DNA from: Parcubacteria group bacterium Athens0714_12
GTDB lineage: Bacteria > Patescibacteriota > Patescibacteriia > UBA2591 > VMGY01
Assembly: GCA_007378955.1 (NCBI GenBank)
Contig: VMGY01000009.1
Coordinates: forward strand, 1-40,021
Length of the DNA stretch: 40,021 nucleotides
Reading direction: 5' to 3'
In this document: positions 9,705-37,544 of the stretch, piece after piece
Layout of the letters: the number at the start of each line of letters is the position of its first letter
Numbering within the stretch: position 1 is the stretch's first letter
Made by a program: the position numbers and the translations under genes
Notes under the pieces: generated by a model
The model's database searches: none
Told to the model about the DNA's origin: nothing
Seen by the model: only the letters and a program-made list of their open reading frames with translations

Positions 9705-9852
9705 AATTACTTTGAATTACGAAATGCGCTTTTTAAAACAAAAAGAGTAGGGCGCGCGCTCATATCTTTTTTGCGCTGCGGACTTATGACGGGCGTCTGC
9801 AAAAAAGATATGAGCGCGCCCCGAATAATGAATTTCGTAATTCAAAGTAATT
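9705..9852. mobile_element. Palindromic family 1, copy 1 (MITE-like, 21-bp perfect TIRs)
   Basis: AATTACTTTGAATTACGAAAT ... ATTTCGTAATTCAAAGTAATT; central stem-loop CATATCTTTTTTGCGCTGCGGACTTATGACGGGCGTCTGCAAAAAAGATATG. Confidence 0.85.
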
Positions 9853-20395: not shown

Positions 20396-20430
20396 GGCTC
20401 GCGCAAATATACGCGAGCCTTTTTATTTTA
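20396..20430 (+). terminator. Intrinsic terminator
   Basis: GGCTCGCG-CAAATATA-CGCGAGCC followed by TTTTTATTTTA. Confidence 0.85.
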
Positions 20431-20863
20431 GAAAATTAATAAAAACATCCCGTCGATTTTCTTTTTTGCCGGTTTTTAAATTTATTTCAATTCTGTTTTT
20501 AGGCAGAATTTTTTTTATTTTTTCCGCCCATTCAATGGCGCAAGTAGTATTTTTTTGCCCTAAAAATTCTAAAACGCCGATATTTAGCAAGTCTTGGAAA
20601 TTTTCAATTCTATAAGCGTCTATATGGCATAATCGTTTGATATTGGATTTGGGATTTTTGGTTTGATAAATTTTCATTAAAACAAAAGTCGGGCTGTTAA
20701 CATTTTTTTTGACGCCTAAAGATTTTGCCAAACTTTTAACAAAAACTGTTTTACCCGCTCCTAATTCGCCTGATAAAGCGATTACCTCCCCGCCTTTTAA
20801 TTTTTTGGCTATTTCGCCGGCTATTTTTTGAGTTTGTTTTATGTTTTTATTTAAGTGTTTCAT
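20423..20863 (-). CDS. tsaE: tRNA t6A biosynthesis ATPase TsaE
   Basis: [39 protein letters not shown]. Confidence 0.93.
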
Positions 20864-21993
20864 AATTCTAAATTAGGGTCGGTTTTTATTTTTTGCCAAT
20901 CAGAAAAATCTTTTTTTGCGATATGGAAATAAGCGGCCGCGCCGATCATTGCCGCGTTGTCAGTGCAAAATTTTAATTCAGGAATAAATAAATTTACTTC
21001 AGGCAAATTTATTGCGGTTTGTTTTTTTAAATCCTCGCGCAGTTTTTTATTGGCCACCACGCCGCCGCCTAAAATAATACTTTTGACTTTATATTCTTTG
21101 GCCGCCCTAATAGTTTTTTCTATTAAAACATCAACAACTGCCTGTTGAAAAGACGCGCAAAAATCCTCCAAAAAATTTTTCGGCTTTGATTTTATTTTTC
21201 GCGATTGGTAAAGCGCCGCGGTTTTCAGGCCGGAAAAACTGAAATTATAATTTTTTGTTTTTGACATCGGTCGGGGCAAGTTGTATTTATAAGGATTTCC
21301 GCTTTCAGCCAATTTAGAAATAATCGGACCGCCCGGGTAGCCGATATTTAATAGCTTGGCAACTTTATCAAAGCATTCGCCGGCTGCGTCGTCTAAAGTT
21401 TGCCCGATTTTTTGATACTTTAAATGATTTTTCATTAAAACTAATTCCGTATGCCCGCCGGAAACAACTAAGCAAAGAGCGGGAAATTTAACATTTTTGT
21501 CATTGCGAGGAGTGATGACTTTTTCTTTGTCATTGCGAGGAGCCTCAGCAGAGGCGACGAAGCAATCCCGAGGATGAGCGAAGAGGATTACTCCGTCGCG
21601 CGGTTTGCCATCTCCTCTGTCTGTCAGCCAATTGGCGTAGATATGTCCTTCTAAGTGATTTACCGCGATTAAAGGTTTTTGCCAAACATAAGACAATGTT
21701 TTCGCGGTTTCCACGCCGACTAAAAGAGAAGTGATTAAGCCCGGACCGTTTGTCACGGCCAAATAATCTATTTTTAAATTTTTAGGCAAATTTTTTAAAG
21801 ATTTTTCTATTAAAGGAATAATAATTTCAAGATGTTTTCTGGCCGCGACTTCCGGCACGATACCACCATATTTTCTATGGATATTAGTTTGCGAAGAAAC
21901 TAAATTAGATAAAATATTAAAAGAGCCGTTTTTCGCTTCCAATAAGCAAAGAGCTGTTTCGTCACAGGATGTTTCTATGGCTAAAATAATCAT
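20860..21993 (-). CDS. tsaD: tRNA N6-adenosine threonylcarbamoyltransferase TsaD, with repeat-derived insertion
   Basis: AIETSCDETA, NHLEGHIYAN, VVSGGHTELV, LDDAAGECFDKVAKLL, FSFSGLKTA, CTDNAAMIG. Confidence 0.96.
   Translation of the reverse strand: MIILAIETSCDETALCLLEAKNGSFNILSNLVSSQTNIHRKYGGIVPEVAARKHLEIIIPLIEKSLKNLPKNLKIDYLAVTNGPGLITSLLVGVETAKTLSYVWQKPLIAVNHLEGHIYANWLTDRGDGKPRDGVILFAHPRDCFVASAEAPRNDKEKVITPRNDKNVKFPALCLVVSGGHTELVLMKNHLKYQKIGQTLDDAAGECFDKVAKLLNIGYPGGPIISKLAESGNPYKYNLPRPMSKTKNYNFSFSGLKTAALYQSRKIKSKPKNFLEDFCASFQQAVVDVLIEKTIRAAKEYKVKSIILGGGVVANKKLREDLKKQTAINLPEVNLFIPELKFCTDNAAMIGAAAYFHIAKKDFSDWQKIKTDPNLEL
21490..21624. repeat. In-frame repeat-derived insertion within tsaD (about 45 codons)
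   Basis: Contains TTTGTCATTGCGAGGAG twice 30 bp apart and CATTGCGAGGAGCCTCAGCAGAGGCGACGAAGCAATCCCGAGG, a CATTGCGAGGAGC...GCGACGAAGCAATC-type dispersed repeat. Confidence 0.85.
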
Positions 21994-24478: not shown

Positions 24479-24612
24479 AATTAGCTTGAATTACGAAATT
24501 TATTATTCGGGGCGCGCTCATATCTTTTTTGCGCTGCGGACTAATGACGGGCGTCTGCAAAAAAGATATGAGTGCGCCCCCTACTCAGCCTATTTCGTAA
24601 TTCAAAGTAATT
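24479..24612. mobile_element. Palindromic family 1, copy 2
   Basis: TTGAATTACGAAAT ... ATTTCGTAATTCAA; GGGGCGCGCTCATATCTTTTTTGCGCTGCGGACTAATGACGGGCGTCTGCAAAAAAGATATGAGTGCGCCCC. Confidence 0.85.
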
Positions 24613-25596: not shown

Positions 25597-25602
25597 TATT
25601 CC

Positions 25603-25721
25603 TTGAATTACGAAATGGATAATCGGGTGAGTAGATATGTCTTTTTTGCGCTGCGGACTTGTCGCCGCGTCTGCAAAAAAGACATATTTACTCACCCTTG
25701 AAATCGTTATTTCGTAATTCA
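25603..25721. mobile_element. Palindromic family 1, copy 3 (divergent stem)
   Basis: TTGAATTACGAAAT ... ATTTCGTAATTCA; stem GGGTGAGTAGATATGTC / GACATATTTACTCACCC around TTTTTTGCGCTGCGGACTTGTCGCCGCGTCTGCAAAAAA. Confidence 0.85.
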
Positions 25722-28923: not shown

Positions 28924-30210
28924 TTAGACATTTTTTTGCAATTCTTCTTCTATCTCCAATAATCTATTATATTTCGCGATTCTTTCTCCTCTAGATGGCG
29001 CTCCTGTTTTGATGAAATCGGCATTTACCGCCACGGCTAAATCAGCGATAAAATCATCAATTGTTTCTCCTGACCGATGGGAAATAATTATTTTGTAATC
29101 ATTCTCCCGCGCCAATTTAATGCAATCTAAAGTCTCAGTCAGCGTTCCAATTTGATTTGGTTTAATTAAAATAGCATTGGCAATGCTCATTTCAACGCCT
29201 TTTTTTAATTTTTCAGTATCAGTGACAAATAAATCATCGCCGACTATCAATAAATCTTTGTTTTGAATTTTCATTTTTTCTGTTAACGCTTTCCAGCCCA
29301 TCCAATCATCTTCAGCCAACCCGTCTTCTATGGAAATAATGGGATGTTTTAATGCCCAATCTTGGTAAAGATTGATAATCTCCAAAAATGACCATTCTTT
29401 TCCTTCTAATTTATATTTTTTTGTTTTTTCATCATAAAATTCAGAAGCCGCGGCATCAAGCGCGATAAAAGCGTCTTTTCCCGCTTTATAGCCGACAGAA
29501 TTAATCGCTTCTTCTATCAGTTTTATCGCTTCCTCGTTATTTTTTAAAGCAGGCGCGAAACCTCCCTCATCTCCCACCGCGGTTGTATAGCCCTTTATGC
29601 CTTTTAAAATATTTTTTAAAATATAAAAAATTTCCACGCCAGTCCGAAGCATTTTTTCAAAATTATTTTTAGCGGGGACAACCATAAATTCTTGGATTTC
29701 CGCTTTTGAACTTTCAACATGCTTGCCGGCGTTAATAATATTAAACATCGGTTGCGGCAGAGCAAAATTTTTATTTTCTATTCCATAAAGTTTTCTTAAA
29801 TATTCATATAAAGGAATTTTTTTTGACATCGCTCCCAATCGGGCGCAGGCTAAAGACACTCCCAAGATAGCGTTTGCTCCCAAATTAGATTTATTTTTTG
29901 TCGCGTCCAAATCGAGCATTATTTGGTCGATTTTTTTTTGGTCGGTTATTTCCATGCCTTTCAAGGCATTATTAATTTTTGTTTTTACGTTTTCGCGCGC
30001 CTTTAAAACTCCTTTTCCCTTGTAGCGATTCAGGTCATTATCTCTTAATTCCAAGACTTCATATTTTCCTTTTGAGGCGCCGGAAGGAACTTGCGCTTTT
30101 GCCCTTAATCCATTTTCTGAAATTATTTCCACTTCTAAAGTCGGCTCTCCTCGCGAATCCAATATCTCCCGCGCGGAAATGTTTTTAATTTTTGTTGTTT
30201 CATTCGCCAT
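28924..30210 (-). CDS. eno: Enolase
   Basis: ISAREILDSRGEPTLEVEI, GDEGGFAP, SIEDGLAEDDW, GDDLFVTD, ILIKPNQIGTLTETL, SHRSGET. Confidence 0.97.
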   Translation of the reverse strand: MANETTKIKNISAREILDSRGEPTLEVEIISENGLRAKAQVPSGASKGKYEVLELRDNDLNRYKGKGVLKARENVKTKINNALKGMEITDQKKIDQIMLDLDATKNKSNLGANAILGVSLACARLGAMSKKIPLYEYLRKLYGIENKNFALPQPMFNIINAGKHVESSKAEIQEFMVVPAKNNFEKMLRTGVEIFYILKNILKGIKGYTTAVGDEGGFAPALKNNEEAIKLIEEAINSVGYKAGKDAFIALDAAASEFYDEKTKKYKLEGKEWSFLEIINLYQDWALKHPIISIEDGLAEDDWMGWKALTEKMKIQNKDLLIVGDDLFVTDTEKLKKGVEMSIANAILIKPNQIGTLTETLDCIKLARENDYKIIISHRSGETIDDFIADLAVAVNADFIKTGAPSRGERIAKYNRLLEIEEELQKNV

Positions 30211-30238
30211 ATAATTTTATTAGGTGATTTGTAATATT

Positions 30239-30391
30239 GAGATGGTTACAAAACTCTTTCGTCGCGAAATTTTAGATTTTCTGGCGAGACAAGGAAGACA
30301 AGTAAAAAGATTTGAAACGTAGCAAAGCGACGGTGAAAATCTTTTTATGAAAAGATAAAATTGCAGCAGAAATGAGTTTTGTAACCATCTC
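30239..30391. mobile_element. Palindromic family 2 (MITE-like), copy A
   Basis: 18-bp perfect TIRs GAGATGGTTACAAAACTC ... GAGTTTTGTAACCATCTC; flanked by ATT on both sides; internal AAAAAGATTT...AAATCTTTTT hairpin. Confidence 0.88.
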
Positions 30392-30407
30392 ATTATAATA
30401 TAATAAC

Positions 30408-31529
30408 TTATTTAATCAAGGGCTTAACGCCCGGCAAGACATTTCCTTCTAAAAATTTCAGCATCGCGCCTCCTCCCGTGGAAATAAAAACATTTTTACC
30501 TTTTTTTTGATTTTTTAAAGCAACGATAGTTTCTCCGCCGCCAATAATAATTTTCGCCTTTTTATTGTTTAAAACAGCTTCGGCTATTTTTTTTGTGCCT
30601 TGGGCAAAGCCGTTTTTTTCAAACATTCCCATCGGCCCGTTCCAAACAATCATTTTAGCTTTTTTTATATAATTTGAAAATAGCTTCGCGGTTTTTGGGC
30701 CGATGTCTAAAATAATTTCATTTTTATCCGCCTCGTTTATATTTTTTGGTTTTTTATTTTCAACAACGATGTCTATCGGCAGAACTATTTTTTTTTCTTT
30801 TAGTATTTTTTTTGCTTCACCCAGCACTTCTTCTTCTATTAATGATTTGCCTGTTTCATAGCCGGAAACTTTAAAAAAATTATTAGCCAAGGCGCCGCCA
30901 ACCAATAAATAGTCAATTTTTTTTAAAAGATTTTTTATTACTTTTATCTTGGTGGAAATTTTAGCGCCGCCAATGATCGCGATAAAGGGGCGATCAGGAT
31001 TTTCTAAAATCTTGCTTAATTCTTTTATTTCCTTTTCTAATAAAAAGCCGGCGCAACTGGGCAGAAATTTAGTGATTGCCGAAACCGAACTATGCTCGCG
31101 GTGGCAAACGGAAAAAGCGTCGTTAACATAAATATCCGCCAAATCAGCCAATTTTTTGGCAAAAGCCGGGTCATTTTTTTCTTCTTCAGGATAAAAACGG
31201 AGATTTTCCAATAAAATTATTTGACTTGGCTTCATCGCTTGTATTGTTTTTTGGGTTTTTTTTCCCAGGCAATCATCCAGAAATTTAATTTTTAAATAAT
31301 CAGCAATCAGCTTTAAGCTGTATTTTTTATCTTTTGTCCCCTTGGGTTGCCCTAAATGGCTGATTAAAATTATTTTGGCTTTATTTTTAACCAAATATTC
31401 AATAGTCGGCATAACAGCCTTAATCCGGCTATTGTCGGTTATTTTACCATTTTTTATCGGCACATTAAAATCCGCCCTTAATAAAACTTTTTTATTTTTA
31501 ACATTGATTTTTTTAACTGATTTTAGCAT
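30408..31529 (-). CDS. pgk: Phosphoglycerate kinase
   Basis: VLLRADFNVPIKNGKITDNSRI, LISHLGQPKG, LLENLRFYPEE, GGAKISTKI, WNGPMGMFE, GGGETI. Confidence 0.97.
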   Translation of the reverse strand: MLKSVKKINVKNKKVLLRADFNVPIKNGKITDNSRIKAVMPTIEYLVKNKAKIILISHLGQPKGTKDKKYSLKLIADYLKIKFLDDCLGKKTQKTIQAMKPSQIILLENLRFYPEEEKNDPAFAKKLADLADIYVNDAFSVCHREHSSVSAITKFLPSCAGFLLEKEIKELSKILENPDRPFIAIIGGAKISTKIKVIKNLLKKIDYLLVGGALANNFFKVSGYETGKSLIEEEVLGEAKKILKEKKIVLPIDIVVENKKPKNINEADKNEIILDIGPKTAKLFSNYIKKAKMIVWNGPMGMFEKNGFAQGTKKIAEAVLNNKKAKIIIGGGETIVALKNQKKGKNVFISTGGGAMLKFLEGNVLPGVKPLIK

Positions 31530-35652: not shown

Positions 35653-37362
35653 ATGAAACAGAAAAAAATAAAAATTATCATCAATGGCCGAAAAATTGAA
35701 ACCAATGAAGGTAAAACAATTTTAGAAGCGGCGCGTGAAAATAAAATAGAAATTCCCGCCTTATGCTTCCATTCGGATTTGAAAGTAAAAGCTAATTGCC
35801 GGATATGCACGGTGGAAATAAAAGGAATAAAGGGTTTGCAAACAGCTTGTTCAACTGAAGCGAAAAAGGGAATGGAAATTATCACTGATTCGCCAAAAAT
35901 CAGCAAAGCCAGAAAGATTAATTTAGAATTAATATTTTCCCAGCATACCGAAGAGTGCGATGATTGCGTTTGGGATTTTAATTGCCAAATTTTAAAATTA
36001 GCCAAAAAATATAAAGCGGAGATTACCCGTTTTGCCGACCGGAAAAAGGATTATCCTCTTTATCGCTTCGGGCCATCAATTGATTTTGACAATACTAAGT
36101 GCATTATTTGCCGAAATTGCGCGGAGGTTTGCCCGGTAGATTTTTTAGAAATTAAAAACAAGGGCGCGGAAATTCAGATTACTCCTTCAAAAGATAAAAA
36201 TAAAGATTGTATTTATTGCGGCCAATGCGTTACCCATTGCCCGGTCGGCGCGATAGAAGGTGTTGGCGAGTTTGAAGATATTGAAAAACCGTTGCAGGAA
36301 AAAGATAAGATTGTTGTTGCCCAATTCGCTCCATCTATTAGAACGAGTATCGGCGAGGAATTTGGTTTGCCTTATGGCGAAATTGTCACGGAAAAATTAG
36401 CTGCGGGGATTAAAAAATTGGGATTTGACAAAGTTTTTGACGTGAGTTTTGGCGCTGATTTTACGACCATGGAAGAATCCGAGGAGTTGATTGAAAAATT
36501 GGCAAAAAAAGAAAACTTGCCAATAATGACTGCCTGCTGTCCAGCATGGGTTAAATTTATAGAATTTTATTATCCGGAATTTATTCCTAATTTAACTTCA
36601 GTCCGCTCGCCGCAGATTATTTTAGGCGGTTTAATAAAAACTTATTGGGCGGAAAAGCATAATATTGATCCCAAAAAAATCGTGGTTGTTTCCATAATGC
36701 CTTGCGTGGCAAAAAAATATGAAATCACCAGAAAAGAATTTAATCTTAACGGCTTAAGGCCAGTTGATTATGTTTTGACTACCCGGGAATTGGCGTATCT
36801 TTTAATTAAAAATAAAATAAATTTTAAAACCATTAAGCCGCAGTTGCCGGACGCGCCTTTGGGGGTAGCTTCCGGCGCCGGTGTGATTTACGGCGTTTCG
36901 GGCGGAGTAATGGAATCAGCTTTGCGGACGGCTTATGAAAAAATGACCGGCAAAAAATTATTAAAGATAGATTTTAAAAAAATCAGAGGAATGGAAGGAA
37001 TTAAAAAAGCGGAAATAAAGATTAATGGCAGTAAAATTAAAGTTGGCGCCATAAGCGGCATTAAGAACGCGAAAAATATCTTAGAAGAATTAAAGAGAAA
37101 TCCGCAGTCTTATGATTATTTAGAGGTGATGGCTTGTCCCGGCGGCTGTATCGGCGGCGGTGGACAGCCCGTGCCGACTGATGCTAAAATTAGAGCGGAA
37201 AGAGCAAAGAGCCTTTATAAAATTGACCTTAAAAAAGAAGTAAGATTGGCGCATCAAAATCCCGCTTTACAAAAAATTTATAAAGAATTTCTTAATAGCA
37301 AAGAAAAAATTCATTCTATTTGCCATACTGAATATAAATATAAAAAAAGAATAAAGACATAG
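35653..37362 (+). CDS. hydA: [FeFe]-hydrogenase catalytic subunit (NuoG-like N-terminus + H-cluster domain)
   Basis: 2Fe-2S CFHSDLKVKANCRIC; HTEECDDCVWDFNC; two 4Fe-4S motifs (CIICRNCAEVCP, CIYCGQCVTHCP); H-cluster motifs TACCPAW, MPCVAKKYE, EVMACPGGCIGGGGQP. Confidence 0.96.
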   Translation: MKQKKIKIIINGRKIETNEGKTILEAARENKIEIPALCFHSDLKVKANCRICTVEIKGIKGLQTACSTEAKKGMEIITDSPKISKARKINLELIFSQHTEECDDCVWDFNCQILKLAKKYKAEITRFADRKKDYPLYRFGPSIDFDNTKCIICRNCAEVCPVDFLEIKNKGAEIQITPSKDKNKDCIYCGQCVTHCPVGAIEGVGEFEDIEKPLQEKDKIVVAQFAPSIRTSIGEEFGLPYGEIVTEKLAAGIKKLGFDKVFDVSFGADFTTMEESEELIEKLAKKENLPIMTACCPAWVKFIEFYYPEFIPNLTSVRSPQIILGGLIKTYWAEKHNIDPKKIVVVSIMPCVAKKYEITRKEFNLNGLRPVDYVLTTRELAYLLIKNKINFKTIKPQLPDAPLGVASGAGVIYGVSGGVMESALRTAYEKMTGKKLLKIDFKKIRGMEGIKKAEIKINGSKIKVGAISGIKNAKNILEELKRNPQSYDYLEVMACPGGCIGGGGQPVPTDAKIRAERAKSLYKIDLKKEVRLAHQNPALQKIYKEFLNSKEKIHSICHTEYKYKKRIKT

Positions 37363-37536
37363 AGATGGTTACAAAACTCTTTCGTGGCGAAATTTTAGAT
37401 TTTCGGACGAGACAAGGAAGACAAGTAAAAAGATTTGAAACGTAGCAAAGCTACGGTGAAAATCTTTTTACGCTGGCTGACGAAGTCGCAGCCGAAAAGA
37501 TAAAATTGCAGCAGAAATGAGTTTTGTAACCATCTC
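37362..37536. mobile_element. Palindromic family 2 (MITE-like), copy B
   Basis: GAGATGGTTACAAAACTC ... GAGTTTTGTAACCATCTC; flanked by ATA on both sides; internal similarity to copy A plus an extra segment CGCTGGCTGACGAAGTCGCAGCC. Confidence 0.88.
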
Positions 37537-37544
37537 ATAGTACC

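What the first reader, a model, noticed from the sequence alone, without database searches (positions are those of the whole stretch)
21490..21624. Repeat-derived palindromic sequence inserted in frame inside the conserved core of tsaD
TsaD normally passes from NHxxGHxYAN to FP(A/F)LxLxVSGGHT through a short linker. Here about 45 codons (TDRGDGKPRDGVILFAHPRDCFVASAEAPRNDKEKVITPRNDKN) lie between them. The DNA is built from CATTGCGAGGAGC...GCGACGAAGCAATCC-type dispersed repeat modules, including two TTTGTCATTGCGAGGAG copies 30 bp apart. The frame stays open and motifs on both sides are intact. This is analogous to Rickettsia palindromic elements (RPE) that add peptides to functional proteins, here in a t6A-synthesis gene.
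Basis: partly seen in the sequence, partly recalled or inferred. Interest (0 to 1): 0.85.

Follow-up and report, generated by a model that had tools for sequence, protein, structure and literature searches.

The report
Repeat-built loop in essential tsaD gene
A small mobile palindromic repeat has landed in frame inside the essential tRNA-modification gene tsaD of a tiny-genome Patescibacteria bacterium, adding a floppy surface loop of about 40 residues, and unrelated repeats have repeatedly landed in the same loop in relatives, which makes this loop a natural record of where an essential enzyme tolerates junk DNA.

Summary
In the only tsaD of a complete 827-kb Patescibacteria genome, 45 codons (window 21490-21624, minus strand, residues 124-168) lie between HLEGHIYANWL and KFPALCLVVSGGHT. 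Most of this DNA is dispersed repeat. CATTGCGAGGAG occurs 61 times exactly in the genome (78 with up to one mismatch; reversed control 1). A 72-bp composite unit recurs at 93% identity on another contig. The same family sits in frame in isoleucyl-tRNA synthetase. AlphaFold folds TsaD confidently except residues 129-165, essentially the insert, which is predicted disordered.

The loop is usually about 16 residues. In many Patescibacteria it is 28-59 residues and made of different repeats, several of which are dispersed in their own genomes. I count at least 11 long/short changes on a TsaD tree. So the loop is a recurrent, tolerated landing site for REP/RPE-like elements, most likely near-neutral insertion filtered by selection.

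Protein-coding palindromes are known (Rickettsia RPE, intragenic REPs). I found no earlier report of them in Patescibacteria, in t6A synthesis, or of one loop filled repeatedly by unrelated repeats. There are no expression or activity data.

The parts
20860..21993 (-). tsaD, 377 aa, only copy in the genome; all invariant motifs intact on both sides of the insert
21490..21624 (-). in-frame insert, 45 codons (TsaD residues 124-168, TDRGDGKPRDGVILFAHPRDCFVASAEAPRNDKEKVITPRNDKNV)
   Evidence: AlphaFold pLDDT below 50 for residues 129-165
21528..21569 (+). complete repeat unit TGTC-ATTGCGAGGAGCCTCAGCAGAGGCGACGAAGCAAT-CCC (hairpin with TGTC tag and CCC tail)
   Evidence: about 95 units of the same form in about 330 kb of this genome
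21498..21512 (+). second, truncated repeat unit TGTCATTGCGAGGAG, 30 bp from the first
21570..21601 (-). reverse-oriented partner arm (GACGGAGTAATCC...), making a composite; 21528-21599 recurs at 93% identity at C12:6937-7008 and, more weakly, elsewhere
21602..21624 (-). non-repeat part of the insert (unique or decayed)
   Evidence: no BLAST match beyond query position 110
20423..20863 (-). tsaE, the ATPase partner of TsaD, directly downstream and overlapping by 4 bp
   Evidence: TIGR00150 and PF02367

Best explanation
A small non-autonomous palindromic repeat of the REP/RPE kind (form TGTC-ATTGCGAG...GCAAT-CCC, often in composites of opposite orientation) was copied into the tsaD coding sequence at a surface loop between the metal-binding HxEGH helix and the following beta strand. 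Most frames of the repeat unit are open, and it entered in a polar, charged frame (NPRDCFVASxxxPRND) without shifting the reading frame. It therefore makes a disordered, solvent-exposed loop, and the enzyme is kept because its core is untouched. The same loop in other Patescibacteria has absorbed other repeat families several times, because it is one of the few places in TsaD where length is not constrained. Shown: repeat origin, dispersal, intact core motifs, predicted disorder, recurrence. Inferred: translation with the insert, near-neutrality, and mobilisation in trans (possibly by one of three Y1/RAYT-like transposases in the genome).
For: 61 exact copies of the 12-mer against 1 in the control. 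The 72-bp composite recurs at 93% identity. About 95 units share one form, with TGTC before the core in 70 of 73. The same repeat peptide lies in frame in ileS (NPRDCRVASGKALRND), where order relatives mostly have a short linker. AlphaFold is confident for TsaD except residues 129-165, and the model matches solved TsaD structures. Loop lengths: about 16 aa in most relatives, 28-59 in many Patescibacteria. Loop DNA of L036, L040, L045, L048, L118, L123 and L130 has further copies in each one's own genome. At least 11 long/short changes on the tree. Close sisters differ by an insertion: L129 against L132, and L080 against L082, L072, L087. In the TsaD alignment, insertions of 10 aa or more concentrate in this loop (24 rows), then three or four others.
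Against: No expression, proteomics or activity data. Only one genome of this genus and family is held, so the exact empty site cannot be seen for this species. The count of 11 changes depends on a length threshold (28 aa) and on a quick tree with many weak branches, and it cannot tell gain from loss. Long loops of one clade (ISNFQFxISKxIQN type) are probably inherited and then re-invaded. No transposition was shown, and none of the three RAYT-like genes is flanked by the repeats in the usual way.
Confidence: 0.88

Rival explanations
1. The extra loop is a selected, functional addition (for example it tunes docking of TsaE, TsaB or tRNA), domesticated from a repeat.
For: It sits directly after the HxEGH helix. 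TsaE contacts alpha1, alpha2, alpha4 and alpha6 of T. maritima TsaD (PMC11648230), and this helix may be alpha4 by my own count. Long loops recur in this place.
Against: Loops in different lineages share no common sequence or length; in this genome the loop is predicted disordered. They are whatever repeat is common in each genome. Close sisters do without.
Confidence: 0.07
2. The loop is a true insertion hot spot: the DNA at the ANW codons (AATTGGC) is a preferred target of the mobilising enzyme or of template switching, and tolerance alone does not explain the recurrence.
For: In one group of loops (L035, L036, L040, L041, L046, L049, L052, L129) the insert starts with an inverted copy of the host codons (AATTGGC...GCCAAT), making a palindrome at the junction. 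This loop has more long inserts than any other TsaD loop.
Against: Most of those loops are one clade, so the junction may be inherited. Other TsaD loops also take inserts. The insert in this window shows no such junction.
Confidence: 0.12
3. Assembly or binning artefact: a repeat array wrongly placed inside tsaD.
For: Draft genome of 27 contigs with many copies of the repeat; reads not available.
Against: Both flanks are consecutive halves of one gene in one frame, 135 bp is a multiple of three with no stop, and the genome is rated 100% complete with a single TsaD. A false join at a repeat would bring unrelated flanks together.
Confidence: 0.02
4. tsaD is a decaying pseudogene and the insert is an early lesion.
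For: Insertion in a conserved core.
Against: All invariant residues are present, the frame is open, tsaE is intact next to it, there is no other TsaD in the genome, and t6A is near-universal.
Confidence: 0.02

Closest known systems
Rickettsia palindromic elements (RPE-1; RPE-4 and RPE-6)
   Same: Palindromic dispersed repeats with open frames, inserted in frame into conserved genes. One such protein, guanylate kinase, was shown to be translated and active (reviewed in PMC2229807). RPE-4 and RPE-6 are CGTC-type repeats (PMC3733652).
   Different: Different host division, and not shown to be homologous in sequence. RPEs of that review are 105-146 bp; the units here are about 37-53 bp, in composites.
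CGTC-tagged REPs (families CGTC-1 to CGTC-4)
   Same: Tag before an AT-starting palindrome (TGTC is a described variant of CGTC), a CC-type tail, dimers of opposite orientation, intragenic copies, no dedicated transposase next to them (PMC3733652).
   Different: The palindrome is longer than the 8-9 bp stem and 4-5 nt loop described. Patescibacteria are not among the phyla listed for CGTC repeats.
Different REPs at the same site of recB in Xanthomonas campestris and X. oryzae
   Same: Nearest precedent for different repeats at one site of one gene (PMC3733652).
   Different: Two species of one genus; here many lineages of Patescibacteria and several repeat families.
Wolbachia palindromic elements and ERIC/RU MITE protein fusions
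   Same: Repeat-encoded peptides fused in frame to conserved genes (PMC2229807).
   Different: Other repeat families and hosts.

Membership tests
Protein-coding palindromic repeat (RPE-like insertion, as a kind) | dispersed palindromic repeat present in many copies in the genome | tested here: met
Protein-coding palindromic repeat (RPE-like insertion, as a kind) | in-frame insertion in conserved genes, homologues lack it | tested here: met
   tsaD and ileS
Protein-coding palindromic repeat (RPE-like insertion, as a kind) | insert at surface, fold preserved | tested here: met
   AlphaFold and fold search, predicted only
Protein-coding palindromic repeat (RPE-like insertion, as a kind) | translated and enzyme active | not testable with these tools
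   needs proteomics or complementation
Rickettsia RPE families by homology | sequence homology to RPE-1/4/6 | not tested
   RPE sequences were not retrieved; the key RPE paper was not held
CGTC-type REP superfamily | CGTC/TGTC/CCTC tag at one end and CCA-like tail | tested here: met
   TGTC before 70 of 73 cores; CCCG after 40 of the GAAGCAAT ends, a near match to CCA
CGTC-type REP superfamily | 8-9 bp stem with 4-5 nt loop | tested here: not met
   units are mostly 37-48 nt with a longer, interrupted stem; so it resembles but is not filed as CGTC-1 to CGTC-4
GTAG REP/REPtron with RAYT | repeat flanks its RAYT gene | tested here: not met
   3 Y1_Tnp genes, all below the NCBIfam REP_Tyr_transpos cut-off; repeats absent around two, and only inside the next gene for the third

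The most novel reading that the evidence does not exclude
The TsaD loop after the HxEGH helix is a preferred, not merely tolerated, landing site for palindromic repeats across Patescibacteria, either because the DNA there is a target or because a long disordered loop changes t6A synthesis in these bacteria.
Probability: 0.13. Interest if true: 0.75.

Novelty: new variant of a known kind. Interest (0 to 1): 0.55.

Why it matters
It extends protein-coding palindromes to Patescibacteria and to the near-universal t6A pathway. It also offers one loop of one essential enzyme that several lineages have filled with unrelated repeats, a natural insertion experiment that can separate tolerance from targeting. 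Repeat-derived inserts also break domain models and structure predictions, so they matter for annotating these genomes.

Tried and rejected
Genus and family searches returned only this genome. Text search for the repeat sequence found only unrelated papers. Rfam had no family in the window. The ORF on C12 with the closest repeat copy first looked like a reverse transcriptase, but it has no Pfam or NCBIfam match and its upstream frames are broken, so it is probably a gene remnant and is not counted as a conserved gene. Conserved functional loop: rejected for lack of shared sequence. Intron, intein or bypassing element: not needed, since the length is a multiple of three and the frame is open. 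Low-complexity loops (NFQFxISK, KSKVYKV types) were not counted as clear palindromic repeats.

Full report
Observation. The minus-strand ORF 20860-21993 encodes a 377-aa TsaD that matches TIGR03723 at 397.6 bits against a cut-off of 296.1 and PF00814. The match is broken in two by 45 codons at 21490-21624 (residues 124-168), between HLEGHIYANWL and KFPALCLVVSGGHT. All invariant TsaD columns are present on both sides, and no second TsaD was found in the genome, which is rated 100% complete. tsaE follows directly.

Repeat origin. CATTGCGAGGAG occurs 61 times exactly and 78 times with up to one mismatch in 827 kb, against one match for the reversed control. In about 330 kb fetched around the copies, window included, I find about 95 units of the form TGTC-ATTGCGAG(...)GCAAT-CCC, mostly 37-48 nt long. 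TGTC precedes the core in 70 of 73 cases and CCCG is the commonest tail. In tsaD there is one complete unit (21528-21569), a truncated unit 30 bp away (21498-21512) and a reverse-oriented partner arm (21570-21601). The composite 21528-21599 recurs at 93% identity at C12:6937-7008, in the same peptide frame, and more weakly elsewhere. The last 25 bp of the insert (21600-21624) have no match in the DNA examined. The insert as RNA folds better than shuffles (z -3.7).

Other genes. Of the 47 repeat clusters in the examined DNA, most lie outside long ORFs although about 89% of that DNA is covered by ORFs of 100 codons or more. This is depletion inside genes, as expected if most insertions are removed; part of the 27 of 95 units counted inside ORFs will be in spurious ORFs. 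The clearest second case is isoleucyl-tRNA synthetase (TIGR00392, 901 bits), where KRHPEGISATKGSRVNPRDCRVASGKALRND lies just before FLVWTTTPWTLPAN. Order relatives mostly have a short linker there; of about 23 genomes only this one and G006 have a clearly long one. Large surface-type proteins on C7 and C12 and an ORF on C27 also carry repeat peptides. The whole insert is free of stops in two of six frames (one per strand); the stops in several of the other frames fall outside the single complete unit, for which I count five open frames of six by eye. In the conserved genes the frame used is the polar PRND frame. That choice is a small-number observation.

Structure. AlphaFold2 with 41 TsaD sequences gives mean pLDDT 88.8 and pTM 0.86. 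The only segment below 50 is residues 129-165, between helix 113-122 and strand 172-177. The model matches solved TsaD structures (E. coli, Salmonella, Aquifex). The insert is thus predicted to be a disordered loop that leaves the core intact. TsaE contacts alpha1, alpha2, alpha4 and alpha6 of T. maritima TsaD (PMC11648230), so an effect on docking is not excluded.

Recurrence. In 80 relatives from genome contigs and 25 further genomes of the same order the stretch between HxxGHxxA and the residue before SGGH is most often 16 aa, but 28-59 aa in many Patescibacteria. In the order sample, which was not chosen by loop, 7 of 23 measurable TsaDs, this one included, have 28 aa or more. A concatenated query of nine loop inserts against 14 genomes and a second query show further dispersed copies in the loop's own genome: L036 in G026, L040 in G027, L045 in G028 (two at 100% over 37-41 nt), L048 in G029 (three other places), L123 in G014, L130 in G005 (95% over 42-43 nt), L118 in G019 (four other places); for L080 in G030 the copies are short or partial. 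The repeats of L031, L045, L048, L118 and L130 look unrelated to each other by eye. On a TsaD tree built without the loop, long and short states change at least 11 times (quick tree, threshold 28 aa, gains and losses not separated). Close sisters differ by an insertion: L129 (30) against L132 (16), L080 (52) against L082, L072 and L087 (16). Across the TsaD alignment, insertions of 10 aa or more fall in this loop (24 of 104 rows) and in a few others near residues 70-72, 234 and 270. So this loop is the main, though not the only, landing site. The first relatives' sample was picked with peptide patterns that include EGHIYANW, so its proportions are not unbiased.

Mechanism. The best reading is insertion of a non-autonomous palindromic repeat followed by purifying selection that removes all but in-frame, surface-loop copies. 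Three Y1_Tnp (IS200/RAYT-like) genes are present, but they score below the REP-associated cut-off and the repeats do not flank them, so the mobilising enzyme is unknown. The same was reported for CGTC repeats in general (PMC3733652). In one group of loops the insert begins with an inverted copy of the ANW codons (AATTGGC...GCCAAT), which hints at fold-back copying, but this may be mostly one inherited event.

Known context. Rickettsia palindromic elements were found in frame in 19 protein genes, and guanylate kinase with its insert was translated and active (PMC2229807). CGTC and GTAG REPs lie inside genes in several species, including tRNA synthetases, and two Xanthomonas recB genes carry different REPs at about the same site (PMC3733652). 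I found no paper on such inserts in Patescibacteria or in tsaD in the open library, which lacks the main RPE papers. The kind is therefore known; the host group, the pathway and the repeated use of one loop by unrelated repeats are the new part.

Noticed in passing
window 9751-9822, 24509-24580, 25602-25698: A second dispersed palindromic family (GGGGCGCGCTCATATCTTTTTTGC...GCAAAAAAGATATGAGCGCGCCCC), two copies 96% identical plus a diverged one, two of them next to the mutM-like and RNase H-like genes.
   Followed up: no
window 30209-30416 and 37332-37538: A repeat of about 200 bp in two copies with internal inverted symmetry and a perfectly conserved 45-bp end.
   Followed up: no
L162:7039-10062 (G000 C16:27039-30062): ileS carries the same repeat family in frame before the WTTTPWTLP motif.
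   Followed up: yes
L120 (G007 C62) and L126 (G010 C9): TsaD matches in two order relatives read through one in-frame stop codon; G007 has two TsaD genes.
   Followed up: no
L185/L193 (G017 C21): The open frame holding IleRS in G017 is 1202 aa, suggesting large extra sequence elsewhere in the enzyme.
   Followed up: no
L035, L036, L040, L041, L046, L049, L052, L129 TsaD loops: The insert begins with an inverted copy of the preceding ANW codons, giving a junction palindrome AATTGGC...GCCAAT.
   Followed up: partly
L148, L151, L163 (G000 C5, C7, C23): The repeats also form dense clusters of up to about 270 bp on C5, C7 and C23.
   Followed up: no
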